From Pseudacidovorax sp. (lineage in GTDB: Bacteria > Pseudomonadota > Gammaproteobacteria > Burkholderiales > Burkholderiaceae_C), in contig NZ_JAGOPN010000018.1 of assembly GCF_017991995.1 (NCBI RefSeq), positions 1 through 64,000 on the forward strand: a stretch of DNA of 64,000 bases. Reading direction: 5' to 3'. Under the pieces are notes generated by a model. The model was not told the origin of the DNA and searched no databases. It saw only the letters and a program-made list of their open reading frames with translations. This document shows positions 3,401-20,364 of this stretch, one piece after another (the first letter of the stretch is position 1; each line of letters opens with the position of its first letter). The position numbers were made by a program, and so were the translations under genes.

Positions 3401-6396
3401 GCGCGGATCACGTCCAGGTTGTGCTCGATCACCACCAGCGAATGGCCGGCGTCGAGCAGCTTGCGCAGGGCGCGCATCAGGCGGGCGATGTCGTCGAAGT
3501 GCAGGCCGGTGGTCGGCTCGTCGAAGAGGAAGAGCGTGCCCTTCTTGGCCAGCGGCTGGCGCGACTTGCTGCCGCCACCGGCCGCCTCGGCCAGGAAGCC
3601 AGCCAGCTTGAGGCGCTGCGCCTCGCCGCCGGACAGCGTGGGCACGGGCTGGCCCAGCTTCACATAGTCCAGGCCCACGTCGACGATGGGCTGCAGCACG
3701 CGCTGCACTTCCCTGTCGTTGGCGAACACGGCCAGGGCCTCGGCCACGGTGAGGTCGAGGACGTCGGCGACGTTGTAGACGCCCATGCCCATGCGGCCGG
3801 CGCTTGGTGCGTCCTGGGTTGGCTGCGAGGTCGAGCGGGTTGACCCGGCTTCGACGACAGGCTCAGCCCGAACGGTGGGGGCGTGCTCAGCCCGAACGGT
3901 CCTCGGGCGCTCGATGGTGACTTCCAGAATCTCGGGCCGGTAGCGCTTGCCGTCGCAGTCGGGGCAGCGCAGGTACACGTCCGACAGGAACTGCATCTCC
4001 ACGTGCTCGAAGCCCGAGCCGCCGCAGGTCGGGCAGCGGCCGTCGCCAGAGTTGAAGCTGAATTTGGCCGCCGTGTAGCCGCGCTGCCGGGCCAGCGGCG
4101 CGGTGGCAAAGATTTCGCGCACGGCATCCCACGCGCCCACGTAGCTCGCCGGGTTGGAGCGCGCCGTCTTGCCGATGGGCGACTGGTCGACGAACACTAC
4201 GTCCGACAGGTGATCCGCGCCCAGCAGGCGGTCGTGTGCGCCGGCCGTCTCCGTGGGCTTGCCGAAGTGGCGCATCAGCGCCGGCGCCAGCACGTCCTGG
4301 ATCAGTGTGGACTTGCCCGAGCCGCTGACGCCGGTGATGGCCACCAGGCGCTGCAGCGGGATGTCCACCGTCACGTCCTGCAGGTTGTGCTCGCGCGCGC
4401 CCTCCAGGATGAGCCGCGGCGTGTTCTCGGAGACGAGTCGCTTGAAGCCCATGCCGATGTGCTTGCGCCCACCCAGGTATTCGCCGGTCAGCGTGTCGGC
4501 CCCCCGCAGCTCGTCGACGGTGCCGTCGAACACGATCTGCCCGCCGCGCGCACCGGGACCCGGGCCCATGTCGATCACACGGTCGGCCGCGATCATCACG
4601 GCGGGGTCATGCTCGACGACCACCAGCGTGTTGCCGGCATCGCGCAGGCGCTGCATGGCCTGGGTGATGCGGTCCATGTCGCGCGGGTGCAGGCCGATGC
4701 TGGGCTCGTCCAGCACGAACAGGGTGTTGACCAGCGAGGTGCCCAGCGCCGTGGTCAGGTTGATGCGCTGCACCTCGCCGCCGGAGAGCGTGCGGCTCTG
4801 CCGGTCGAGCGTGAGATAGCCGATGCCCACGTCGTGCAGGTAGCGCAGGCGGGTGGTGATTTCTTCGAACAGAAGCTTGAGCGCCTGTCTTTCTCCTTCC
4901 CCCTCTGGGGGAAGGCTGGGATGGGGGCTGCCCTCTGCATCGAGCGCCGCAGGCCCACACCCCTGCCCTCCCCCAGAGGGGGAGGGGGAAGAAAGCCGGT
5001 CGAAGAACTGCCGCAGGCGCTCGATGGGCATGAGCATCAGGTCATGCAGGCAGAGGCCCGGCAGCGCCTCCAGCTGTTCGCGTGACCACTTCACACCGAC
5101 CGGCATGAAGCGCTTGGCCGGCGCGAGGACGGCATCGGCATCCTCCTTGCCGCCCACGCGCCAGAGCAGGCTCTCCAGCTTGAGCCGCGCGCCGCCGCAG
5201 GCCGGGCAGGGCGTATAGCTGCGGTACTTGGACAGCAAGACGCGGATGTGCATCTTGTAGGCCTTGCTCTCCAGGTAGCCGAAGAAGCGCCGGATGCCGT
5301 ACCACTGCTTGTTCCAGTTGCCTTCCTTGAAGTTGGGCGTGCCTTCGATCACCCAGTGCTTCTGCTCGGGCGTGAGCTTGTTCCAGGGCGTGTCGCGCGG
5401 AATGCCGGCCGATTCGGCATGGCGCATCAGATCCTCCTGCGCCTCCTGCCAGGCCGGCGTCTGGATCGGCTTGATGGCGCCGGCGCGCAGCGTGAGCTTG
5501 TCGTTGGGAATCACCAGGTTGAAGTCCACCCCGATAACCCGGCCGAAGCCGCGGCAGGTGTCGCAGGCGCCCACCGCGGAGTTGAAGCTGAACATCGACG
5601 GGATCGGGTCTGCATAGCGGATGTCGCTCTCGGGGCAGTGCAGGCCGGTGGAGAACTTCCAGGTCTCGGCCTCGCCGCCCTCTTCCGCCGGCAGCGCATG
5701 CACCATCACCCGGCCGGTGCCGCGCTTGAGCGCCACCTCCAGCGCCTCGATCACCCGAGCGCGCTCGGTGTTCGCGATGCGAAAGCGGTCGGCCACCACG
5801 TCCAGCACCTTGCGCGGGCCGGTGGGCGTACCCACCTCGCGCTGCGCATGCACACGGGTGAAACCGCTGGCCGACAGCCACTGCTCCACCTCCGCCTCGC
5901 TGGTGCCGCCCGGCAGTTCGACCGGGAAGGTGACCACCACGCGCGGATCGCCAGCCGCCGCGGCACGCGCCTGCAGCTCGGCATAGATGGAATCGGGCGT
6001 GTCGTGGCGCACCGGCAGCGCGGTCTCGCGGTCGAACAGCCGGCTCGCCCGCGCGAACAGCATCTTCAGATGGTCGTTCAGCTCCGTCATCGTGCCGACC
6101 GTGGAGCGCGAGCTGCGCACCGGGTTGGTCTGGTCGATGGCAATGGCGGGCGGCACGCCCTCCACCTTGTCGACCGCCGGCTTGTCCATGCGGTCCAGGA
6201 ACTGGCGGGCGTAGGCCGAGAAGGTCTCCACATAGCGGCGCTGGCCCTCGGCATACAGGGTGTCGAACACCAGGCTGGACTTGCCCGAGCCGCTGGGCCC
6301 GGTGACCACCGTCATCTCACCCGTGCGGATGTCCAGATCGATGTTGCGGAGGTTGTGCTGGCGAGCGCCGCGGATGCGGATGGAACCCTGTGTCAT
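481..6396 (-). CDS. uvrA: Double-length excinuclease ABC subunit UvrA (UvrA-UvrA tandem)
   Basis: The protein has 1971 residues, about twice the usual UvrA length, and consists of two complete UvrA modules (about 1-1000 and 1000-1971). Four Walker A motifs are visible: GPSGSGKSS near residue 33 and three GVSGSGKST copies. Each module has LSGGE signatures, DEPS/DEPT Walker B motifs and CxxC zinc fingers such as CPTCGGSG. UvrA is the cytoplasmic DNA-damage sensor of nucleotide excision repair. Tandem forms of this length are, to my knowledge, typical of Burkholderiales and probably accompany a normal uvrA elsewhere. The start at MTQGSIRIRG is chosen because the family begins there; an upstream in-frame start would add 20 atypical residues. 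Two in-frame repeat insertions (about residues 468-503 and 832-850) interrupt it; see the repeat entries. Whether this protein replaces or supplements standard UvrA cannot be told here. Confidence 0.95.
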   Translation of the reverse strand: MTQGSIRIRGARQHNLRNIDLDIRTGEMTVVTGPSGSGKSSLVFDTLYAEGQRRYVETFSAYARQFLDRMDKPAVDKVEGVPPAIAIDQTNPVRSSRSTVGTMTELNDHLKMLFARASRLFDRETALPVRHDTPDSIYAELQARAAAAGDPRVVVTFPVELPGGTSEAEVEQWLSASGFTRVHAQREVGTPTGPRKVLDVVADRFRIANTERARVIEALEVALKRGTGRVMVHALPAEEGGEAETWKFSTGLHCPESDIRYADPIPSMFSFNSAVGACDTCRGFGRVIGVDFNLVIPNDKLTLRAGAIKPIQTPAWQEAQEDLMRHAESAGIPRDTPWNKLTPEQKHWVIEGTPNFKEGNWNKQWYGIRRFFGYLESKAYKMHIRVLLSKYRSYTPCPACGGARLKLESLLWRVGGKEDADAVLAPAKRFMPVGVKWSREQLEALPGLCLHDLMLMPIERLRQFFDRLSSPSPSGGGQGCGPAALDAEGSPHPSLPPEGEGERQALKLLFEEITTRLRYLHDVGIGYLTLDRQSRTLSGGEVQRINLTTALGTSLVNTLFVLDEPSIGLHPRDMDRITQAMQRLRDAGNTLVVVEHDPAVMIAADRVIDMGPGPGARGGQIVFDGTVDELRGADTLTGEYLGGRKHIGMGFKRLVSENTPRLILEGAREHNLQDVTVDIPLQRLVAITGVSGSGKSTLIQDVLAPALMRHFGKPTETAGAHDRLLGADHLSDVVFVDQSPIGKTARSNPASYVGAWDAVREIFATAPLARQRGYTAAKFSFNSGDGRCPTCGGSGFEHVEMQFLSDVYLRCPDCDGKRYRPEILEVTIERPRTVRAEHAPTVRAEPVVEAGSTRSTSQPTQDAPSAGRMGMGVYNVADVLDLTVAEALAVFANDREVQRVLQPIVDVGLDYVKLGQPVPTLSGGEAQRLKLAGFLAEAAGGGSKSRQPLAKKGTLFLFDEPTTGLHFDDIARLMRALRKLLDAGHSLVVIEHNLDVIRASDWVIDLGPEGGDGGGRIVAQGTPEQVREMPGTHTGMALAAYETALGPAARVVRESAARYRPVPALGRDAIEIVNAREHNLKNLSVEIPRGKFSVVTGVSGSGKSTLAFDILFNEGQRRYLESLNAYARSIVQPAGRPEVDAVYGIPPTVAIEQRLSRGGRKSTVGTTTEVWHFLRLLYVKLGVQHCIRDGAAVQPQTPDSIVAQVMRQFRGQHVGLLAPLVTNRKGVYTELADWARPRGYTHLRVDGQFLPTTGFPRLDRFKEHSIELPVASADVLPSAESLLRQAVTSALEHGKGVVHVLSDIGALRAAMEAGQSTAGIGHAHVFSTLRACPVCATSYAELDPRLFSYNSKHGWCPDCVGTGVKLTREQRKVFDDSVLADDQRGREQTFAEPEAEDVGDTVCPTCEGTRLNATARAVKFAGVGIAEIARLSVTDVRRWVESLALEGRQADIARDLIPEIGSRLEFLEEVGLGYLTLDRGAPTLSGGEAQRIRLAAQLGSNLQGVCYVLDEPTIGLHARDNQILLDALHKLGDKGNTLVVVEHDEDTIRRADHVIDIGPSAGKRGGRLVAQGTVDEVQQSEESLTGRYLRDAIRHPLHARRLVSETAEEGEGAVSWLAVAGANLHNLQSVDVSIPLNRLVVVTGVSGSGKSTLARDVLLANVQAIVQQRMTKAGRDADAAGKRPRWVGCTGVAGYEEIDRVLEVDQTPIGKTPRSCPATYIGFWDTIRKLFADTLEAKARGYGPGRFSFNTGEGRCPGCEGAGVRTIEMSFLPDVKVPCEVCHGARFNPETLAVTWRGKSIGDVLQMEVDEAVAFFASMPNISHPLQLLKDVGLGYLTLGQPSPTLSGGEAQRIKLVTELSKVRDDVTRRGNKAPHTLYVLDEPTVGLHMADVEKLIHVLHRLVNANHSVVVIEHDLDLIAEADWIVDLGPEGGSGGGRVVASAPPEDVVAQGTHTGVALRSVLERGAVRV
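3848..3901. repeat. REP-like GGCTCAGCCCGAACGG element inside uvrA
   Basis: Two head-to-tail copies of the motif GCTCAGCCCGAACGG lie at about 3860-3875 and 3886-3900; the first has the full preceding arm (GCTTCGAC). The same motif occurs as an inverted pair inside mccB at 35946-36006. It is translated as part of UvrA (peptides TVRAE and TVRAEPVVEAG, about residues 832-850) between the zinc finger region and the signature domain. It keeps the frame. Confidence 0.8.
4889..4995. repeat. About 107-bp palindromic element inserted in frame in uvrA
   Basis: The ends are imperfect inverted repeats: CTTTCTCCTTCCCCCTCTGG at the left and the complementary arm CCCAGAGGGGGAGGGGGAAG at the right, with GGGATGGGGG and CCCACACCCC inside. 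A second copy with the same ends lies at 40399-40518 between two genes. In uvrA it is read through as a Ser/Pro/Gly-rich peptide (about residues 468-503, [10 protein letters not shown] and SLPPEGEGE) in a loop before the first LSGGE motif. I infer a REP/MITE-type element that can be tolerated in coding sequence. Confidence 0.85.
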
Positions 6397-13544: not shown

Positions 13545-14120
13545 TTAAAGTTTACTCAGCCCCTCATCGCGAAAAATCCGAAGCTCGCCGCGCATGTCGA
13601 TCACGAGGTGGTCCATGAGCGCAACAAGGCCTTTAAACTGATCGTACGACTTGGTCACAAGTCCCTGACGCTGGCCAGGAACAACTTCCGCACCCTCGCT
13701 CCAAAGTGATCTTGACGCTTGAATTTCCAGTGCCCGATCTACCACGGCGGTCATTGAGTTGGCGATACCGGCAGGGAAGTAGAACTCGGCCAATTGCGCG
13801 TGCTTCCACAGTGCCCAGACAGCATCATCCTTGAAGTGAATACCGCCGCCAACAACGCGGGATTTGAACTGCAATAGCGCCTTGTATGCCTCAAGTTGGT
13901 GAGTGTGCACGGCAATTTTGTTCTGCGACTTGGCTTCTGCCAGAGCAGCCTTGGCAAGAACGGATTGCGCCTGAGCTTCTCTGACAGCACTCTCGGCGGC
14001 TTTTGCCTGCCGCCGAGCTTCGTTCGCAGACCGTTCGGCGTAAACCGCAGCTAACAGGGCGGCGAGGAACATGCCGGCCGAGAGCAAATTCGGAACATCG
14101 AACAATATCAACTCCGCCAT
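13545..14120 (-). CDS. Cassette protein: one membrane segment plus coiled coil
   Basis: I do not recognise the family. The 191-residue product starts at MAELILFDVPNLL, next to an attC, with a hydrophobic segment at about 9-27 (LSAGMFLAALLAAVYAER). An Ala/Lys/Glu-rich region at about 28-65 (ARRQAKAAESAVREAQAQS) should form a coiled coil, and a mixed globular C-terminus follows. It is therefore probably anchored in the inner membrane with a cytoplasmic body. The longer frame upstream is not used, because it would run through the attC. It is the last cassette of the array as read. Confidence 0.7.
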   Translation of the reverse strand: MAELILFDVPNLLSAGMFLAALLAAVYAERSANEARRQAKAAESAVREAQAQSVLAKAALAEAKSQNKIAVHTHQLEAYKALLQFKSRVVGGGIHFKDDAVWALWKHAQLAEFYFPAGIANSMTAVVDRALEIQASRSLWSEGAEVVPGQRQGLVTKSYDQFKGLVALMDHLVIDMRGELRIFRDEGLSKL

Positions 14121-14125
14121 GTGAG

Positions 14126-14224
14126 GCCTAACATTTGACGCGAGGGCCCGCCGCAGCGGCGAAGCCGCGCAGGGAATCCACACACGCAGCTTGTGGGCGG
14201 TCCCTCTCGACAAAATTGCCGGGC
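14126..14224 (-). repeat. attC site between cassettes
   Basis: Read on the minus strand, the R' box is GTTAGGC (14126-14132). The opposite box is the degenerate GCCCGGC (14218-14224), immediately after the TGA of the GIY-YIG gene. The arms GTTTGACGCGAGGGC-like and TTGTCGAGAGGGACCG-like pair imperfectly, and a GC-rich stem (CCGCAGCGGCGAAGCCGCGC) lies between. Confidence 0.7.
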
Positions 14225-14225
14225 G

Positions 14226-14981
14226 TCAGCACTGTAGATACCGAAGCGGGTTTTGACTACCACGGACAAACAGGTGGGCTACAGACTGGCCTACATAGCC
14301 TGAGACTTGGCTGTGCTGATTTTCACCTGTCATCTTTTTTCGGCTCTCGTGCCCACTGTCTGTCCATCCGCTTGGAACAAAAACCGCTCGTACAAGCCCG
14401 CGAGCGACAGCAAGAACGCATTCTGCACGTTGAGCACGAGAAATATTGAGTTTCCACTCCCCTTTAGTAGCTTCGTAAATTTCTTCCCTAGGAACCTTTG
14501 TGCCTGAACCATGCTTCGAAACAAGACCGGCCCATTGCCGTTCGATTTTGATTACGAGCATGGGGCGATCTGGTTGTAATTCCTTGGCGCAAAGCGAAAG
14601 GGCCAAATCAGCGGCGTCGTATATGCCCTCAGCAACGCCGTGACCGGATACTTCATTTTTTAGGATATCAGGCTGGATGAGGTTTACGAGATCGATAAGT
14701 GAAGCCTCAATCTTGAAGGCCTCATCTTCGGAGAGGCCGAAGCGAATTATTCTACTTCCTACAAAGAGGCCGTCGTTTTTGATCTCGGCTATGAGTTGTA
14801 GCTTTGCGCTCAAAGGTTCATCTTCAAATTGAACTACTTCATTGCCCAGAGCATGCGAGAAGACTCGGTTTCCGCAGCCCTTCCCGATGTAGAACGGCCA
14901 CTGCGGATTTCTCGGATCAAAGAGTGCATATACGTAGTAGCCGAGCTGTTCTTGCGCCTTGTTATCAAACACAGCGGACAT
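14226..14981 (-). CDS. GIY-YIG domain cassette protein
   Basis: 251 residues. The N-terminus has the GIY-YIG nuclease-like core: YYVYALFDPRNPQWPFYIGKG followed by GNRVFSH (about residues 15-45), similar to the COG3680/LEM-3-like subgroup. GIY-YIG domains cut DNA, but the catalytic Arg/Glu set cannot be confirmed by eye, and the C-terminal half is unassigned. ATG at 14981 is preferred; a TTG two codons upstream is also possible. The stop touches the following attC. As a cassette it may act in DNA transactions or in defence; that is inference. Confidence 0.72.
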   Translation of the reverse strand: MSAVFDNKAQEQLGYYVYALFDPRNPQWPFYIGKGCGNRVFSHALGNEVVQFEDEPLSAKLQLIAEIKNDGLFVGSRIIRFGLSEDEAFKIEASLIDLVNLIQPDILKNEVSGHGVAEGIYDAADLALSLCAKELQPDRPMLVIKIERQWAGLVSKHGSGTKVPREEIYEATKGEWKLNISRAQRAECVLAVARGLVRAVFVPSGWTDSGHESRKKMTGENQHSQVSGYVGQSVAHLFVRGSQNPLRYLQC

Positions 14982-14993
14982 CTCCAAGTGACT

Positions 14994-15064
14994 CTCAACG
15001 TTTGAGATAATCGGCTTCGCGCGCTTTTTTTTGCGCGAGTTCCGTGGCGACCGAGAGGTTAGCC
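14994..15064 (-). repeat. attC site
   Basis: On the minus strand the R'' box is GGCTAAC (15058-15064) and overlaps the TAA stop of the next gene; the R' side is GTTGAGA (14994-15000). Between them CTCTCGGTCGCC pairs imperfectly with GCCGATTATCTC, and a GCGCGC stem flanks an A8 loop. Confidence 0.75.
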
Positions 15065-15562
15065 GTCGATTTCACGATAGTTCTCTCGGCGCCACGCACG
15101 CTGCTTCTTGGAGAAGCGCTTGAATGGCTTTATGTAGAGCGGAGTGCATTCCCATTTAACTCTCTCCCAGTCGTGCTTGAGAAGGAGCGCAATGCGGTGA
15201 GCGAACACTTTCAGATCATCGGACTCGCCGGAAAATAGACTGTCATAGTGGGCCAGGATTGCTCCATCGTGGCCTTTATCCTTGGGGTTGATCGACGTTT
15301 CGAGGCGCGCCCTTAACGAAGCCACCTTTGCAGGAATTGGACTAGCCTTGTTTTCAACATAAGTGGTGGCAATATCTTCGCACAATTTCCGCATGTTGTC
15401 TCGCCACTTCGTTCGTTCCTTTGTGACTTGTTCAAGCTGAACGGCGCGTTCATCTTTTCGCAGCGCGACGAAGGATGCAATCCAACCTCCGATGGCTGTA
15501 AGAGAAACACCAGCCAGTAGCGAGGTGAGGTCAATAGTGAGGTCAGAAGGGAGGGAGAGCAT
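15059..15562 (-). CDS. Cassette protein with one N-terminal membrane segment
   Basis: 167 residues, family not recognised. A hydrophobic segment lies at about 10-30 (LTSLLAGVSLTAIGGWIASF), followed by a charged helical region (RKDERAVQLEQVTKERTKWR), a middle part and a basic C-terminus (FKRFSKKQRAWRRENYREID). This design, membrane anchor plus helical cytoplasmic body, recurs in integron cassette proteins. The start MLSLPSD avoids translating the neighbouring attC, which would otherwise encode LTSNVSR. The stop lies inside the downstream attC. Confidence 0.7.
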   Translation of the reverse strand: MLSLPSDLTIDLTSLLAGVSLTAIGGWIASFVALRKDERAVQLEQVTKERTKWRDNMRKLCEDIATTYVENKASPIPAKVASLRARLETSINPKDKGHDGAILAHYDSLFSGESDDLKVFAHRIALLLKHDWERVKWECTPLYIKPFKRFSKKQRAWRRENYREIDG

Positions 15563-15567
15563 AAGAC

Positions 15568-15625
15568 GGCTAACGTTCGAGGTAAGGGGCAAAGTGCGGC
15601 CTGCCGCACTTCAATAACTTCCTCA
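15568..15625 (-). repeat. attC half-site, probably disrupted
   Basis: The R' box reads GTTAGCC on the minus strand (15568-15574), followed by a clean GC stem AAGTGCGGC/GCCGCACTT. No good R'' partner is found to the right, where relic IS sequence begins. I infer that the cassette boundary was lost when the IS entered or decayed. Confidence 0.55.
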
Positions 15626-15659
15626 CCATACGGCTCAGCTATCGCATCGACGGCATCGA

Positions 15660-16496
15660 GATGATGAGAGTACGGGCGCTTGTCTACCACTGCGCGACAG
15701 GTGCGAGCCCAGCAGCTCGGCTGTGGCAGTCGGGCACCAGCGCCATCGTCGTCCAGCCATCCCGGCCCGCCCACACCCGGCACATGTCGGTCGAACAGCG
15801 TTCGTTCGGCGCATTTGCCACCGAAGGCAATGATTGGATCCTTGGACGAAAGCCTACCAGTCGCTTGCGCACCTGCCAGCCCCTGAGCTGGAAGATGCGC
15901 TGCGCGGTGTTCTTGGTGAATCCGAGCAGGTGCGCCACCGTGCGGTAGCCGAACGAGGGGTTCTCCTCGATCATGGCCTTGTGGCCGGCGCGACCAAATG
16001 TTCCTGCAGCTTCGGTTCGGCCTTCACCGGCTTGTAATACACGCTGCGGCGCGGCACGCCGAGCCACCGGCACAGCTTGCTGATCAAGACGGCGATGCCT
16101 TCGGCCTGCAGCCCCTGGCGGATCGTCTCGATCACTTCTCGTCCTCGCCCAGCAGGGACTGCAATTTTTTCGGGCACGCAACTCGAGCATCGCCTCGCCA
16201 TAGGCCTCCTGCAGGTCCTTGAGCTGGCGCCCATACTGCTCACGCACGTCCCGCGGGTTCGCCTTCATAGCATTTTCCATGCCCTTGCGGCCATCCTCTA
16301 CCCAGCCCTCGATCTCCGAGGGCTGCAGGTGGTAGGCACGGCTTGCCTCCTACACGCTCTTCTTGCCCTGGATGATATACAGCACCGACGCCGTCTTGCG
16401 CTTGGCCGTCCAGCGCTTCATCTCCTTCTTCCATCAACGTACTCACCGCGTCTTCCTTTCAAGCAGGTTTTCACTGGGTCAATGTACTCGGGCTCA
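15660..16496 (-). mobile_element. Decayed IS3-family insertion sequence
   Basis: The two-gene IS3 organisation is recognisable on the minus strand but carries frameshifts and a stop, and the transposase lacks its C-terminal half. The right end probably begins TGAGCCCGAG at 16496, overlapping the last codons of a cassette gene. The left boundary is blurred and no matching terminal repeat or target duplication is evident. It sits inside the cassette array. Confidence 0.7.
15668..16422 (-). pseudogene. IS3-family transposase orfAB, frameshifted and truncated
   Basis: OrfA begins at ATG 16422 after a good AGAAGGAG site (MKRWTAKRKT) and is interrupted by an in-frame TAG in the helix-turn-helix region. 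The OrfA/OrfB linker reads DVREQYGRQLKDLQEAYGEA, then a frame change to IETIRQGLQAEGIAVLISKL and LGVPRRSVYYKP. The integrase-core start follows (NPSFGYRTVAHLLGF, STDMCRVWAGRDGW with the first catalytic Asp). A further frameshift occurs near DCHSR/ELLG and the sequence ends around 15668, so the rest of the DDE domain is missing. It cannot be active. Confidence 0.8.
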
Positions 16497-16841
16497 GTTG
16501 TGAATTACTGGCGCGACGAGTGTTAGCCCTGTAGCCTTTGATATGGCGGTCCACAGGACGTCAACTATTGCGTTCCAGACTTTCTCAATCGTTACCATTA
16601 CCAGTCCGCGAAGAGTCTTAGCAAAACTCAGTGCCATGTCTTCGAGTCCGTCCAAGAAGAACTCATGTGTTTCTGAAGTGATTTGCCCTGTCGCAATGCC
16701 GGTTGCAACCAACTCTGCTTGCTGGGCAATAGCTTTGAGTTGGCGATCAGAGAACCCGCGAAGTGAGGAAACATCAGTATTGAGTACTTTACTTGCGGCC
16801 GTGTGCATGTCGTTAGCGAGTTGTCCTACATCAAGTGCCAT
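16494..16841 (-). CDS. Cassette hypothetical protein, probably cut at its 3' end by the IS
   Basis: 115 residues, family not recognised. Helical throughout: MALDVGQLANDMHTAASKVL, a Ser/Asp-rich stretch, then LVMVTIEKVWNAIVDVLWTAI near the C-terminus, which may be amphipathic or membrane-associated. A strong AAGGAG site precedes the ATG. The TGA stop lies at the presumed IS terminus (CACAACTGAGCC), so the original C-terminus may have been longer. It lies 18 bp downstream of the lipoprotein gene, suggesting a two-gene cassette. Confidence 0.6.
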   Translation of the reverse strand: MALDVGQLANDMHTAASKVLNTDVSSLRGFSDRQLKAIAQQAELVATGIATGQITSETHEFFLDGLEDMALSFAKTLRGLVMVTIEKVWNAIVDVLWTAISKATGLTLVAPVIHN

Positions 16842-16859
16842 TTGCTTTCTCCTTAAATA

Positions 16860-17373
16860 TTAACGTTGAAGAAAATTCTCGTATGTCAATGCTTGATCAA
16901 GGTAGATCAAAATTTGCCCCTTAAAAATCTTGGCCTCAGTTGCTGTGACTCCTTGTTTTTTGTCCGTATCACGCATTTTTGTGACCGTCTCCGCGATTTT
17001 TTTAATTGCATGCACACTTGGAGGCACTTGGTCGTCATCTGCAAGCACAGATGTACCACGGCTTTGCAATACTTTATTGACCAGATCCGAAGCCTTGTTT
17101 TTCGGCATCGGGCGGGCGCCAGCCTGAACAGACAAAGCCTCAAATTTTCCAATAACTGTGTTATATTTTTCCTCTCGCTGCTGAAATGTCGCATTCGTTG
17201 TGGCAGGCGTTACTGCCGCTAGCAAAGTCATCACTTCCGTATTGCCGGAAGTTAGCCCATCAGCAACAGCTTTGTCGTATGCCGGTGCTAGTTGCGTTGC
17301 GCAGCCAGCAAACAAGAGTACAAAAGGAGGTAAACAATAGGCGCAGTCTGTTTGCTATTAAGAGTTTTAACAT
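16860..17373 (-). CDS. Cassette lipoprotein with a -1/+1 frameshift in the signal peptide
   Basis: The body, read from TTG 17315, is LFAGCATQLAPAYDKAVADG and on, about 150 residues with a perfect lipobox (LLFAGC) but no signal peptide in frame. ATG 17373, preceded by AAGGAA, opens MLKLLIANRLRLLFTSF in another frame. Removing one T from the T4 run at 17322-17325 joins the two into a textbook lipoprotein signal peptide. The gene is thus either frameshifted, subject to slippage, or affected by a sequence error. The mature protein is predicted helical and periplasmic; its function is unknown. It is followed closely by the 16494-16841 gene. Confidence 0.6.
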
Positions 17374-17454
17374 GGTGTGTTCCTTGGTTTCAATGATGAA
17401 GAAAAATCAATGGATCGGGTTTGAGTTTGCGTGCGGACAATCCTCCCATGTGAT

Positions 17455-17520
17455 GTCTAACGTGGAAGTGAGCGGCCTGTGCGGCTTTACGCGCAGGGCC
17501 GCTCGACTGAAAATTTAGAC
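17455..17520 (-). repeat. attC site
   Basis: 66 bp. On the minus strand R'' is GTCTAAA (17514-17520), containing the TAA stop of the upstream gene, and R' is GTTAGAC (17455-17461). The arms TCGAGCGGCC and GGCCGCTCAC pair, and an inner CTGCGCG/GCCGCAC stem is present. One of the cleanest sites in the array. Confidence 0.85.
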
Positions 17521-18078
17521 TTGGGCTGCATTATGCAAATTCTCTTTCTCAAGATCTTCGAGATAGCACTCAAGATTTACCGTGATCTTTTCGAGGACGG
17601 GTGGAAGATAACTGACAAGGTCTGAGAAATTTGCATTGTCTCCGCTCGGGCCTCCATGGTAGTTACGACAGTGATCCAGCATATCTTCGCGCTCTTGAGC
17701 GGGAAGTTGCTCCAACGGGTCGCGGCCGTTGTAATCGTGGAGGACAGACAGATGAATGAACGCGCAACCAAATTTGTAAACCGAGCGTGCCCACCCTTGA
17801 AGATTCTGCGCCAGACCGACCATTTCTCTGTCGGTCACGGAAGCGCTTAGATTTGGTTGTGACCACTTGTCGCCACGAACTGATGCCTCAACAAGTAAAC
17901 CTCGGCGTTCAGCACTCTGCGTCAGCAGATAAATGATCCCGACCATCGAATCCAGTTCTTGGCGGAGAACGGCGACCATTTGGCCCGAGAGCCTCTCTCG
18001 CTCAAGAACTGCCATAGCACGTTGATGCTTTTTGGAGCGGCTGCGGACTTGGCGCAGAAAGATGGGGAGCGCGTCCAT
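17515..18078 (-). CDS. Cassette hypothetical protein
   Basis: 187 residues, soluble, family not recognised. No signal peptide or membrane segment is seen. It starts MDALPIFLRQVRSRSKKHQR (basic), continues with a helical region (LSGQMVAVLRQELDSMVGII) and ends in an acidic helix (CYLEDLEKENLHNAAQV). The TAA stop lies inside the downstream attC and the start is only 5 bp from the upstream attC, so it is a single-gene cassette with no room for its own promoter. It probably depends on transcription from outside. Confidence 0.65.
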   Translation of the reverse strand: MDALPIFLRQVRSRSKKHQRAMAVLERERLSGQMVAVLRQELDSMVGIIYLLTQSAERRGLLVEASVRGDKWSQPNLSASVTDREMVGLAQNLQGWARSVYKFGCAFIHLSVLHDYNGRDPLEQLPAQEREDMLDHCRNYHGGPSGDNANFSDLVSYLPPVLEKITVNLECYLEDLEKENLHNAAQV

Positions 18079-18082
18079 TAAG

Positions 18083-18148
18083 GACTAACGTAGGGTTGAG
18101 CGGACTGCGCGGCTTATAGCGCAGATCCGCTCGAACTTAAGGTTATTC
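18083..18148 (-). repeat. attC site
   Basis: 66 bp. On the minus strand R'' is GAATAAC (18142-18148), overlapping the stop of the pYEATS gene, and R' is GTTAGTC (18083-18089). The arms TTCGAGCGGATCTGCGC and GCGCAGTCCGCTCAA are nearly complementary with an unpaired base, as in true attC sites. Confidence 0.85.
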
Positions 18149-18499
18149 GTCGACTGCCACATAATTGCCTCCATCATCTTCTGGCAGGTCGTAGGTTAGA
18201 TAGTACTGAATACGGTGAATCGATCCGTCCCGCAGGTGAATTGCGACATCGATCATGAACATCCCCCAGGTCCAAATGGTGATCGAGAACTTGTTGGCAC
18301 GATTCGACGAGGATCGTATCGGTCGTTTGAAAGATGGGTGCAGGGTGTACTCTACGTGCTCAATAGAGTCCAATTCACTCTTAGTGCCTTCAATCCAAAT
18401 GCCTACGTGAAAATGCTCACGCCCGTTCCCGCTGGGCTTCCAGAACTTAATCTTTCCCGCTGGGTTTTTGATGACCTGTCGAGTTACGGTAAGCGTCAT
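18143..18499 (-). CDS. pYEATS domain protein
   Basis: 118 residues forming one beta-rich domain. The pattern VEYTLHPSFKRPIRSS, then FSITIWTWGMFMIDVAIHLR and HRIQYYLTYDLPE matches the prokaryotic YEATS (pYEATS) family, including the LHPSF motif and the aromatic WTWG loop. In surveys of prokaryotic conflict systems pYEATS domains occur with membrane effector or signalling domains and are proposed sensors. Here the gene starts 8 bp after the stop of a two-TM protein and shares its cassette. Family call by motif; function inferred. Confidence 0.72.
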   Translation of the reverse strand: MTLTVTRQVIKNPAGKIKFWKPSGNGREHFHVGIWIEGTKSELDSIEHVEYTLHPSFKRPIRSSSNRANKFSITIWTWGMFMIDVAIHLRDGSIHRIQYYLTYDLPEDDGGNYVAVDE

Positions 18500-18507
18500 G
18501 ATTTTCC

Positions 18508-19107
18508 TCAGGGGGAGTGGCTAGGCTTTCGAGATACGGCCACGATGTCGGGGGCATCAAACCCAAGAATCGTAGGGGCGTCTCCGTCGCCTTCGGGCTC
18601 AAGTTCGTAGCGACCAATTATTCCTGCCAAGACAGAGCCATTAAATGCGCGTTCGGCCGAGTCTCGATCTGAAGCGAGGACCTCGAACGGCACTTTCGTC
18701 CCCTCGGTTAGGCGCTTGGAAATTTGGCCAAAAGGCTCCATCCCGGATGTCAAATCTGTTGCGTTTTCCATCGCTATCACGCAGGTCACGATGTCCTTTT
18801 TTATGCCTTCAAGTTGAGTTCGGCATTCCCAGAATGCCTGCGATGATTTTCCAGGCGCATAGGCTTGTTCGATTGCGGATAGCGTCGCAGTAAGAATGCC
18901 GGCAATAACCGTAAGGGGAGGCCAAGGAGTTGCTGTTGTAAGTGCGGTGGCGACTGCCGAAGCGAGAGTGCCGCGTCTCATCCACTCGTTAATTAACCTG
19001 TTCCTACGATAGTCACGCTCATAGGCGGAGAGCGTTCCATGAGCCTCTAGCCAATGGTCTCTTGCTAACCGGTACAAGTTGAGTCGCTGCTCGGTTGAAA
19101 TTGGCAT
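18508..19107 (-). CDS. SLATT-like two-transmembrane protein, partner of pYEATS
   Basis: 199 residues. An N-terminal helix (RLNLYRLARDHWLEAH) and a basic YRRNRLINEWMRRG stretch lead into two adjacent hydrophobic segments at about 47-85 (TLASAVATALTTATPW and LTVIAGILTATLSAIEQAY). A cytoplasmic helical region (WECRTQLEGIKKDI) follows. This helix-2TM-helix arrangement resembles SLATT domains, membrane effectors found with nucleotide-signal and pYEATS components of defence loci. Similarity is at pattern level only. It forms a two-gene cassette with the downstream pYEATS gene. The start MPISTEQ excludes translated attC sequence. Confidence 0.62.
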   Translation of the reverse strand: MPISTEQRLNLYRLARDHWLEAHGTLSAYERDYRRNRLINEWMRRGTLASAVATALTTATPWPPLTVIAGILTATLSAIEQAYAPGKSSQAFWECRTQLEGIKKDIVTCVIAMENATDLTSGMEPFGQISKRLTEGTKVPFEVLASDRDSAERAFNGSVLAGIIGRYELEPEGDGDAPTILGFDAPDIVAVSRKPSHSP

Positions 19108-19140
19108 ATTGACATCTTGTATGATTAGGAGAATTGAGAC

Positions 19141-19209
19141 GCATAACGTTCGCAGTAAGAGGCGACTTGCGCGTCGGCGCAAAACGTCCCCTCGACTAAG
19201 GAGTTAGCG
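19141..19209 (-). repeat. attC site
   Basis: 69 bp. On the minus strand the R'' side is CGCTAAC (19203-19209) and R' is GTTATGC (19141-19147). The arms AGTCGAGGGGACG and AGTCGCCTCTTAC pair partly, with a GCGCCGACGCGC central stem. Confidence 0.75.
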
Positions 19210-19216
19210 GGCACCT

Positions 19217-19870
19217 TCATCGTGGCCTCACGATTGCCTCGACGGCAAGGCTGAACAATTGCTGCGGTTGGTTCGTCTCGGCGAATGCGCCAAGCCTCTT
19301 TGCCTCTGCCGCAAACTCGGGAGACGCAGAACCGCTGTATATGATGAGTGGTGGCGGGTTCTTTAGACTCTGAACCCGCTTTAGAAGTGTGTACCCAGCG
19401 CGCTCGTCATCTACCCGTTTGAAGTCAGTGATTACAAGGGCAAACTGCTGGCTTTGAAGCAAGGGAAGGGCTTCGGATGTACTGCGAGCTTGGACAAATG
19501 TGACTCCAAGCGCCGACAAGGCATTGCGCTCGTACTCCTGATTCTGCGGGTTGTCATCCACCCAGAGAACCTTTGCTTTGTCCAACGAGATCGCACTGGC
19601 CTTCCGAGCGACGTCCTGAATGGCCTTTGTATTCGGCGGTGCCTCTGGCGGTTTCCCATCGGGGCCGCCACTTTCCACGGCCTGCAGCAGATAGAAGCTG
19701 ATCTTTATGCCCTTCTCGTTCAGTTCAATGTCTTTGGGGACACTTGTTCCCTTGAAGACCAAGAGAATCAAGAGCAACGCTGCCGGCCAGACAACCACCT
19801 TAAGGATTTGAACTAGGCGATCCGGTTGACCTTCGGTCTTAATAGGCTGAGCATTTGACTTGCTAATCAT
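19217..19870 (-). CDS. Membrane-anchored receiver (REC)-like domain protein
   Basis: 217 residues. One hydrophobic segment at about 24-44 (ILKVVVWPAALLLILLVF) precedes a linker, and residues about 98-217 form a receiver-like alpha/beta domain. It keeps the acidic pair (VLWVDDNP), the phosphoacceptor-position Asp (LVITDFKR) and the Ser switch position (IIYSGSASP). The conserved lysine appears missing (AFAETNQP). No output domain is present. A stand-alone anchored receiver in an integron cassette is unusual; it could be a pseudo-receiver in a stress or defence module. The start follows a CTCAGGAGCGAC site beyond the attC. Confidence 0.68.
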   Translation of the reverse strand: MISKSNAQPIKTEGQPDRLVQILKVVVWPAALLLILLVFKGTSVPKDIELNEKGIKISFYLLQAVESGGPDGKPPEAPPNTKAIQDVARKASAISLDKAKVLWVDDNPQNQEYERNALSALGVTFVQARSTSEALPLLQSQQFALVITDFKRVDDERAGYTLLKRVQSLKNPPPLIIYSGSASPEFAAEAKRLGAFAETNQPQQLFSLAVEAIVRPR

Positions 19871-19889
19871 GTCGCTCCTGAGGTTTGTG

Positions 19890-19975
19890 TGACGGCTCAC
19901 GTTTGACGTGAGGGGTAACCGGAGCCGCACGCGGAGGGAATTATTGGCAGATTGCACCTATTTTGACGTACTTAG
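19890..19975 (-). repeat. Degenerate attC site
   Basis: The left part GGCTCACGTTTGACGTGAGG closely resembles the 14126 site (GCCTAACATTTGACGCGAGG), but R' is mutated from GTTAGCC to GTGAGCC. A GGAGCCGCACGCGGAGG stem follows, and the distal box next to the TAG of the next gene is unclear. Probably an inactive attC. Confidence 0.55.
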
Positions 19976-20364
19976 TAGTCAATACATTGATACCCATAGC
20001 CGTCAAGCATGCCGTGAGCGGATAGATAAATGCTAAAGCGCTTAAAAAGACCAAAAAATTCTAGCAATGCCATTTCTAATTTGACGCATCGCACATCGAC
20101 CGGCCCGTTGGCCGAATTTATCTTCTCTTGAACGTTATCGTGATCGCTCGGTGTCGCAAGCAAAAACTCGACATGTACTGGGTCTCTGTGCGTCCCGTGA
20201 CTCTCGCCTGCGGACAACGTAATACCTAGCAAGAACTCATCGTCTTTGATGAGGCCTTTGCTTTTAAGCCAATCCTTTGCGTCACCTTTATCCGCTGAGT
20301 CTGCGGCGGAAGTTCCTTTCCAGTCATCATACTGAACAGAGGCTTTGAATTTTTGCGGGTACAT
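19972..20364 (-). CDS. Cassette hypothetical protein
   Basis: 130 residues, soluble, unrecognised. It begins MYPQKFKASVQYDDWKGTSA, has alternating beta/helix character, a His-rich stretch (ESHGTHRDPVHVEFLL) and an aromatic C-terminus (SAHGMLDGYGYQCIDY). No signal peptide or membrane segment. A TAGGAGCAACC site lies before the ATG. It is the first cassette of the visible array in transcription order. Confidence 0.65.
   Translation of the reverse strand: MYPQKFKASVQYDDWKGTSAADSADKGDAKDWLKSKGLIKDDEFLLGITLSAGESHGTHRDPVHVEFLLATPSDHDNVQEKINSANGPVDVRCVKLEMALLEFFGLFKRFSIYLSAHGMLDGYGYQCIDY

What the first reader, a model, noticed from the sequence alone, without database searches (positions are those of the whole stretch)
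18143..19107. Two-gene SLATT-like/pYEATS cassette as a candidate defence or conflict system
A two-TM helical protein and a pYEATS protein are encoded 8 bp apart inside one integron cassette, bounded by attC sites at 18083 and 19141. pYEATS domains in bacteria are associated with membrane effectors in conflict systems (Burroughs and Aravind surveys of SMODS/SLATT networks). A compact pair without a nucleotide cyclase or TIR partner, moving as one cassette, would be a minimal sensor-effector unit. The family assignments rest on motif reading.
Basis: partly seen in the sequence, partly recalled or inferred. Interest (0 to 1): 0.78.

Follow-up and report, generated by a model that had tools for sequence, protein, structure and literature searches.

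The report
Mobile YEATS-reader and membrane-protein gene pair
A small mobile gene cassette in a bacterial chromosome encodes a protein resembling the readers of chemically tagged lysines in our own chromatin, paired with a probable membrane protein, and a similar pair was found in a distant bacterial phylum, which suggests a compact two-part alarm system that remains to be tested.

Summary

Of 12 stand-alone pYEATS genes found, 11 follow directly on a gene for a probable membrane protein; eight of those belong to another family. Other pYEATS are fused to hydrophobic segments, a TIR domain or a papain-like protease.

Best reading: a cytosolic ligand sensor controls a membrane effector, probably in conflict with phages or plasmids. 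Adjacency, fold and pocket signature are shown; ligand, interaction, pore activity and defence are inferred. New variant of a known kind.

The parts
18143..18499 (-). pYEATS gene, 118 aa, stand-alone prokaryotic YEATS domain with LHPSF (residues 53-57) and TWGMF (77-81)
18508..19107 (-). SLATT-like helical, probably membrane-associated protein, 199 aa; start codon not certain
   Evidence: DUF4231 E 0.0017 and SLATT_1 E 0.0024, both under cut-off; BLASTP E 2e-7 (two-sequence comparison) to the L034 partner; all-helical low-confidence model
18500..18507 (-). 8-nt spacer; an SD-like GAGG overlaps the upstream stop codon, suggesting translational coupling
   Evidence: read by eye; no terminator-like site found in 18000-19320
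18082..18148 (-). attC site of this cassette; the pYEATS stop codon lies inside its R' box
   Evidence: 68.7 bits with model R1; fold z -5.36
19140..19209 (-). attC site of the preceding cassette, i.e. the upstream border
   Evidence: 62.6 bits with model R1; fold z -1.72, weak
17454..17520 (-). neighbouring attC site of the same array
   Evidence: 70.7 bits with model R1; fold z -4.18
14992..15064 (-). neighbouring attC site of the same array
   Evidence: 70.0 bits with model R1; fold z -2.76

Best explanation
The cassette is a two-gene sensor-effector unit. The first gene makes a small helical SLATT-like protein that sits in or on the inner membrane. The second gene, probably translationally coupled, makes a cytosolic YEATS domain whose aromatic acyl-lysine pocket residues are in place. 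The pYEATS protein most likely binds the membrane protein and controls it in response to a ligand, by analogy an acylated lysine on a protein or a similar planar acyl group. The changed membrane protein then permeabilises or depolarises the membrane, giving growth arrest or death of the infected cell. Shown here: the gene pair, its presence in two phyla, the YEATS fold, the pocket signature, the recurrent link of stand-alone pYEATS to a membrane-protein gene, and the mobile cassette setting. Inferred: physical interaction, the ligand, pore formation and a role in phage or plasmid conflict.
For: Conserved pair: in L034 (Phycisphaerae) the pYEATS is 50% identical over 118 residues and starts 4 nt after a SLATT-like gene (read) whose product aligns with the window partner (25% over 73 residues, E 2e-7 for that one comparison) and scores SLATT_4 1.8e-6, SLATT_1 5.2e-6 and PADLOC 2TM effector 8e-5. 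Of 12 stand-alone pYEATS genes, the gene directly upstream encodes a probable membrane protein in 11: two SLATT-like, eight of a second 2-3 TM family, one other. The twelfth (L026) lies in an island with TIR_2, TPR-S and patatin genes. Background: 5 of 140 ORFs are 2-3 TM proteins of 150-260 aa (some partners are in that set). A TIR-pYEATS fusion exists (TIR_2 2.8e-25, pYEATS 4.2e-6). The pocket residues His, Ser/Thr, Phe, Trp, Gly, Phe are complete in 11 of the 12 stand-alone genes (L055 has Leu for the first Phe); they match AF9 H56, S58, F59, Y78 and F81, given as acyl-lysine contacts in passages of PMC12362337. SLATT proteins are required for phage defence in DRT10 (passages of preprint PMC12632851).
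Against: The SLATT score is below cut-off and hydropathy is weak. The partner model is poor (pLDDT 47.6) and its listed fold matches are generic helical bundles. The SLATT-like/pYEATS pair was recognised in 2 of 30 pYEATS genomes. Over all genomes tested the pocket is complete in 20 of 29, and in only 4 of the 9 fused to hydrophobic segments, so pYEATS as a class is not uniformly an acyl reader. Several 2-3 TM pairs sit among ordinary chromosomal genes (read by eye). No PADLOC hit for the window pair. No promoter-like site and no integrase over cut-off, so expression is uncertain.
Confidence: 0.5

Rival explanations
1. An addiction module: the SLATT-like protein is a membrane toxin and the pYEATS protein is its dedicated neutraliser, kept because such pairs stabilise cassette arrays rather than sense invaders.
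For: Tight two-gene architecture in a cassette array of a genome with no integron integrase over cut-off. The pYEATS is well conserved (50%) while the partner diverges (22-25%).
Against: The stand-alone pYEATS keep complete pocket residues in 11 of 12 cases, which a pure neutraliser would not need. pYEATS is elsewhere in one protein with hydrophobic segments or TIR, which does not suit a separable antitoxin.
Confidence: 0.2
2. A non-immune membrane regulator: pYEATS reads an acylation or metabolite state and tunes a membrane protein in ordinary physiology, and the cassette is one mobile copy.
For: 2-3 TM/pYEATS pairs occur in Alphaproteobacteria, the window's own family, Bacteroidota, Acidobacteriota and Planctomycetota, several among housekeeping-like genes (neighbours read by eye).
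Against: Patchy, rare distribution of pYEATS (5 of 399, 7 of 369, 2 of 398, 5 of 199 and 7 of 231 genomes, centre genomes included), the integron cassette setting, and the TIR/TPR-S/patatin company of a relative.
Confidence: 0.2
3. A silent or decaying cassette without present function in this genome.
For: No promoter-like site in 18000-19320, no integron integrase over cut-off, a weak attC remnant at 15567-15619 (17.3 bits).
Against: Both ORFs are intact, and all six pocket positions of the pYEATS are in place.
Confidence: 0.1

Closest known systems
Prokaryotic YEATS (pYEATS, PF20305), proposed as a sensory part of prokaryotic conflict systems (Burroughs and Aravind 2020, recalled; paper not held)
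   Same: Sequence family (82.3 bits) and YEATS fold
   Different: Here a short stand-alone protein paired with a separate SLATT-like gene in one integron cassette; whether that paper already lists this pairing could not be checked
Eukaryotic YEATS readers (YEATS2, GAS41, AF9, Yaf9, Taf14)
   Different: No histones or chromatin context; ligand unknown; paired with a membrane-type protein
SLATT / 2TM effectors (SLATT_1, SLATT_4, PADLOC 2TM effector; DRT10 SLATT)
   Same: Length, helix order in a low-confidence model, and weak profile similarity; the L034 relative is closer
   Different: Below curated cut-offs; no nucleotide cyclase or reverse transcriptase partner seen in the cassette
2-3 TM / pYEATS gene pairs found here (L028, L029, L036, L037, L038, L039, L040, L055)
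   Same: Membrane-protein gene directly followed by a stand-alone pYEATS gene with the WxWGxF motif
   Different: Membrane partner of a different family (hhalign probability 0.14%); the pYEATS of seven of these form their own clade, support 97/99

Membership tests
pYEATS (PF20305) | Profile match over the curated cut-off | tested here: met
   82.3 bits against 26.9, profile 1-73 of 73
YEATS fold | YEATS beta-sandwich fold | tested here: met
YEATS acyl-lysine readers | Pocket residues His, Ser/Thr, Phe/Tyr, aromatic and Phe at AF9 positions 56, 58, 59, 78 and 81 | tested here: met
   H54, S56, F57, W78, F81 by the Yaf9 and YEATS2 alignments and the AF9 description; the counterpart of AF9 F28 was not resolved
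YEATS acyl-lysine readers | Binding of acylated lysine | not testable with these tools
   Needs a binding assay
SLATT | Profile match over a curated cut-off | tested here: not met
   SLATT_1 17.8 bits against 41; DUF4231 19.2 against 24.7. So it is called SLATT-like, not SLATT
SLATT | Two transmembrane helices flanked by helices | tested here: inconclusive
   Helices 5-31, 35-59, 63-82, 89-114 in a model of pLDDT 47.6; highest hydropathy mean 1.34
Integron gene cassette | ORF(s) bounded by attC sites in one orientation | tested here: met
   attC 18082-18148 and 19140-19209, same strand; the second folds only weakly better than shuffles
Complete integron | Integron integrase gene in the genome | tested here: not met
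   TIGR02249: 0 of 1 over cut-off in the window's own genome (38 contigs, completeness 100); best 79.6 bits against 265
Known anti-phage system (PADLOC) | Match to a defence model | tested here: not met
   No match at E up to 1 for five array proteins, both of the pair included

The most novel reading that the evidence does not exclude
A nucleotide-independent bacterial alarm in which a YEATS domain reads protein lysine acylation, for example marks placed or removed during phage infection, and directly gates a SLATT-type membrane effector. It would be carried as a self-contained two-gene integron cassette and mirrored by a second, apparently unrelated 2-3 TM partner family. This would make acyl-lysine reading an immune input in bacteria and point to a conflict-system ancestry for eukaryotic chromatin readers.
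Probability: 0.18. Interest if true: 0.85.

Novelty: new variant of a known kind. Interest (0 to 1): 0.56.

Why it matters
I found no paper that measures a function of a prokaryotic YEATS domain: 'pYEATS' occurs in 0 held papers, and 'prokaryotic YEATS' and 'bacterial YEATS' in 0 of the nine papers returned; most subscription papers are not held. A 1.06-kb mobile cassette with an acyl-lysine pocket signature next to one membrane-type protein is a very small unit in which the idea 'pYEATS senses, membrane partner acts' can be tested. If the pocket is used, bacteria would have a protein-acylation sensor related to chromatin readers. It would also add a candidate to the defence cassettes reported from integrons (passage of PMC12444791).

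Tried and rejected
Searches that gave nothing: tblastn of pYEATS in plasmids and phages, and of the partner in plasmids; five scans of viral contigs with window proteins or pYEATS alignments; PADLOC for the window pair; PHROGs (nothing for the pYEATS, one weak unknown family, E 0.046, for the partner); the partner alignment against solved structures (two kinase chains, E 0.08, not credible). The attC model has no convincing match in 10 of the 11 relatives' loci (two weak matches, 13.6 and 10.1 bits; L038 was not given), so the integron setting is known for the window copy only.

Considered and rejected: that the SLATT-like and 2-3 TM partners are one family (hhalign E 0.41, probability 0.14%; two shallow alignments, so distant kinship is not excluded). 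That the pair is a chance neighbour (L034). That the partner fold can be named from its model (one search lists generic helical bundles; this excludes no family). That the window copy belongs to DRT10 or CBASS: no reverse transcriptase or cyclase match among the array proteins scanned.

Mended on checking: a first pocket count used 19 rows and left out 12 proteins (one of the 12, L045, had two of its repeats in the 19). A second count with those 12 shows the pocket incomplete in L011, L013, L018, L030, L047 and L062, besides L010, L017 and L055; both counts are given. I left the odds as they were because the window copy and 11 of 12 stand-alone genes keep the complete set.

Limits: the genome-contig scan used patterns derived from the window and two 2-3 TM-paired sequences, so its six loci (L035 is the same place as L029) are biased to the WxWG subfamily. 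Of the 12 stand-alone genes, five come from Pfam-profile searches other than the window itself (L021/L026, L027, L028, L029, L055); four of those five have a membrane partner. Membrane segments were called by a hydropathy window, not by a trained predictor; the same window also flags a segment inside the TIR domain of L062, so single-segment calls are soft. Only 150 of 2901 first-look attC candidates in the genome were scored, and weaker attC-like stretches seen by eye near 14127, 19890 and 20411 were not detected by the model.

Full report
What is there. On the minus strand, 19107-18508 and 18499-18143 encode two intact proteins of 199 and 118 residues, separated by 8 nt. The stop codon of the first gene overlaps an SD-like GAGG (by eye). 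The scan of 18000-19320 found no terminator-like and no sigma-70-like site. The second gene's stop codon lies inside the R' box of an attC site (by eye). A covariance model built from four attC-like sequences of the array finds those four in the window at 62.6-70.7 bits; two further weak hits are a likely truncated attC at 15567-15619 (17.3 bits) and the complementary strand of one of the four (16.9 bits). In the 6.24-Mb genome it reports only those four at E up to 0.1, with 150 of 2901 first-look candidates scored. No integron integrase scores over the curated cut-off (best 79.6 bits against 265). The array is best called a cluster of attC sites lacking an integrase, and the pair fills one cassette of about 1.06 kb (about 18143-19204, borders by eye). 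The GC fraction of the 2-kb bins at 14001-20000 is 0.515-0.545, against 0.606-0.727 in the other bins.

How general the pocket is. In the 19 rows the counts are H 17, S or T 17, F 17, W or Y 19, G 19, F 19. Among the 12 stand-alone genes, 11 have the complete set (L055 has Leu for the first Phe). One search added 12 further proteins. Counting a genome once if any of its domains is complete (Phe or Tyr allowed at position 57), 20 of 29 genomes have the complete set; L010, L011, L013, L017, L018, L030, L047, L055 and L062 do not, and L019, below the family cut-off, was not tested. Of the nine fused to hydrophobic segments only four are complete (L014, L015, L051, L054). The pocket is thus a strong feature of the stand-alone paired type, not of all pYEATS. 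Position 76 is Trp in all 10 rows paired with SLATT-like or 2-3 TM partners and in none of the other nine rows, nor in the domains aligned.

The partner. It matches SLATT-related profiles only weakly: DUF4231 E 0.0017 and SLATT_1 E 0.0024, both under cut-off. Its hydrophobic segments are weak and its model is poor (pLDDT 47.6), although the helices (5-31, 35-59, 63-82, 89-114) follow the order helix, two hairpin helices, helix. The link to SLATT comes mainly through its relative in L034, which scores SLATT_4 1.8e-6 and SLATT_1 5.2e-6, both also under cut-off, and the PADLOC 2TM effector model 8e-5.

The pair elsewhere. A scan of the genome-contig collection found six confirmed loci among 46 candidate stretches. 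In L034, a Phycisphaerae contig, the pYEATS is 50% identical over 118 residues, and a SLATT-like gene ends 4 nt upstream (25% identity over 73 residues to the window partner, E 2e-7 for that single comparison). The pair thus occurs in two phyla. The pYEATS is more alike (50%) than the partners are (22-25%). No further SLATT-like/pYEATS pair was recognised: the window-L034 pYEATS profile matched 2 of 150 genomes of the window's family and 4 of 238 of L034's class, and PF20305 matched 7 of 231 of L034's phylum, each count including the centre genome.

The wider picture. Thirty pYEATS genomes were seen in all (own included). Twelve carry a stand-alone pYEATS gene, and in 11 of these the gene directly upstream on the same strand encodes a probable membrane protein: two SLATT-like (window, L034), eight of a family with two or three hydrophobic segments and DF(R/K)H and GYY(F/Y)GE motifs (L028, L029, L036, L037, L038, L039, L040, L055), and one other (L027; there the pYEATS begins with a signal-peptide-like stretch, by eye). 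The twelfth, L026, has an upstream gene without Pfam match in an island with TIR_2, patatin, TPR-S and pentapeptide-repeat genes. Nine of the 30 have the pYEATS in one protein with one to three hydrophobic segments (L010, L011, L013, L014, L015, L017, L018, L051, L054). One is a TIR-pYEATS fusion (L062: TIR_2 2.8e-25; pYEATS 27.0 bits, just over its cut-off of 26.9). Four carry proteins in which repeated pYEATS-like stretches are found (G1510, G1542, G1651, G1743), one of them with a papain-family domain (L053). The remaining four have no clear partner by these tests (L012, L016, L019, L030). Small 2-3 TM proteins make up 5 of 140 background ORFs (that set includes some of the partners). Five of the 12 stand-alone genes come from the biased scan, one (L040) from the window-L034 profile, one is the window; of the five from Pfam searches, four have a membrane partner. 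The 2-3 TM and SLATT-like partners show no detectable relation, and the pYEATS of seven of the 2-3 TM pairs form one clade with support 97/99 (L055 was not in that tree). Two apparently unrelated membrane families thus go with the same reader domain.

How it most likely works. A reader with the aromatic acyl pocket residues, encoded directly after a membrane-type protein, fits a sensor-effector switch. The partner classes (SLATT-like, 2-3 TM, TIR, protease) look like interchangeable outputs around a recurring input. SLATT proteins are predicted pore formers (passages of PMC7159879) and are required for phage defence in DRT10 (passages of preprint PMC12632851). A passage of PMC12444791 reports work in which 20% of Vibrio cholerae integron cassettes of no predicted function encode anti-phage systems. 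These make defence plausible but do not show it. Against it: no PADLOC match for the pair, weak membrane signal, only two copies of the exact pair, ordinary neighbourhoods of several 2-3 TM pairs (by eye), incomplete pockets in 9 of 29 genomes and uncertain expression.

Known or new. From memory, prokaryotic YEATS domains were named as sensory parts of conflict systems by Burroughs and Aravind in 2020; that paper is not held, so I could not check whether it lists this pairing. In the held library 'pYEATS' is in no paper. 'SLATT' and 'YEATS' meet in 15 listed papers; in the only one of them I opened (PMC7159879, passages) the YEATS hits are an author's name, and of the others I saw only the listing. 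The component families are known; the stand-alone SLATT-like/pYEATS cassette, its presence in two phyla and the parallel 2-3 TM pairing are not described in what could be searched. I file it as a new variant of a known kind.

Noticed in passing
window 14226-14987 (-): Another gene in the same array encodes a LEM-3-like GIY-YIG domain (PF22945 E 2.6e-10).
   Followed up: no
window 19217-19957 (-): The neighbouring cassette encodes a response-regulator receiver domain (PF00072 E 3.1e-10, residues 130-225) behind a hydrophobic segment (read by eye), an unusual order.
   Followed up: no
window about 15567-16490: A likely truncated attC (17.3 bits) is followed by what looks like a broken insertion-sequence transposase (read by eye; no Pfam match).
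   Followed up: no
L028 3073-4126, L029 3913-4892, L036 1346-2349, L037 4411-5336, L038 4298-5351, L039 about 4404-5306, L040 837-1839, L055 749-1779: A second gene pair: a 2-3 TM protein with DF(R/K)H and GYY(F/Y)GE motifs followed directly by a stand-alone pYEATS gene, in Alphaproteobacteria, the window's own family, Bacteroidota, Acidobacteriota and Planctomycetota.
   Followed up: partly
L062 2259-3023 (-): TIR-pYEATS fusion protein in a genome of the phylum of L034 (TIR_2 2.8e-25, pYEATS 4.2e-6).
   Followed up: partly
L053 1387-3219 (-); L052; L045: Papain-family protease domain with pYEATS repeats (L053), and similar tandem pYEATS proteins.
   Followed up: no
L026 (whole, 8.5 kb): Island with TIR_2, TPR-S, pentapeptide-repeat, patatin and pYEATS genes, like conflict-system loci.
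   Followed up: partly
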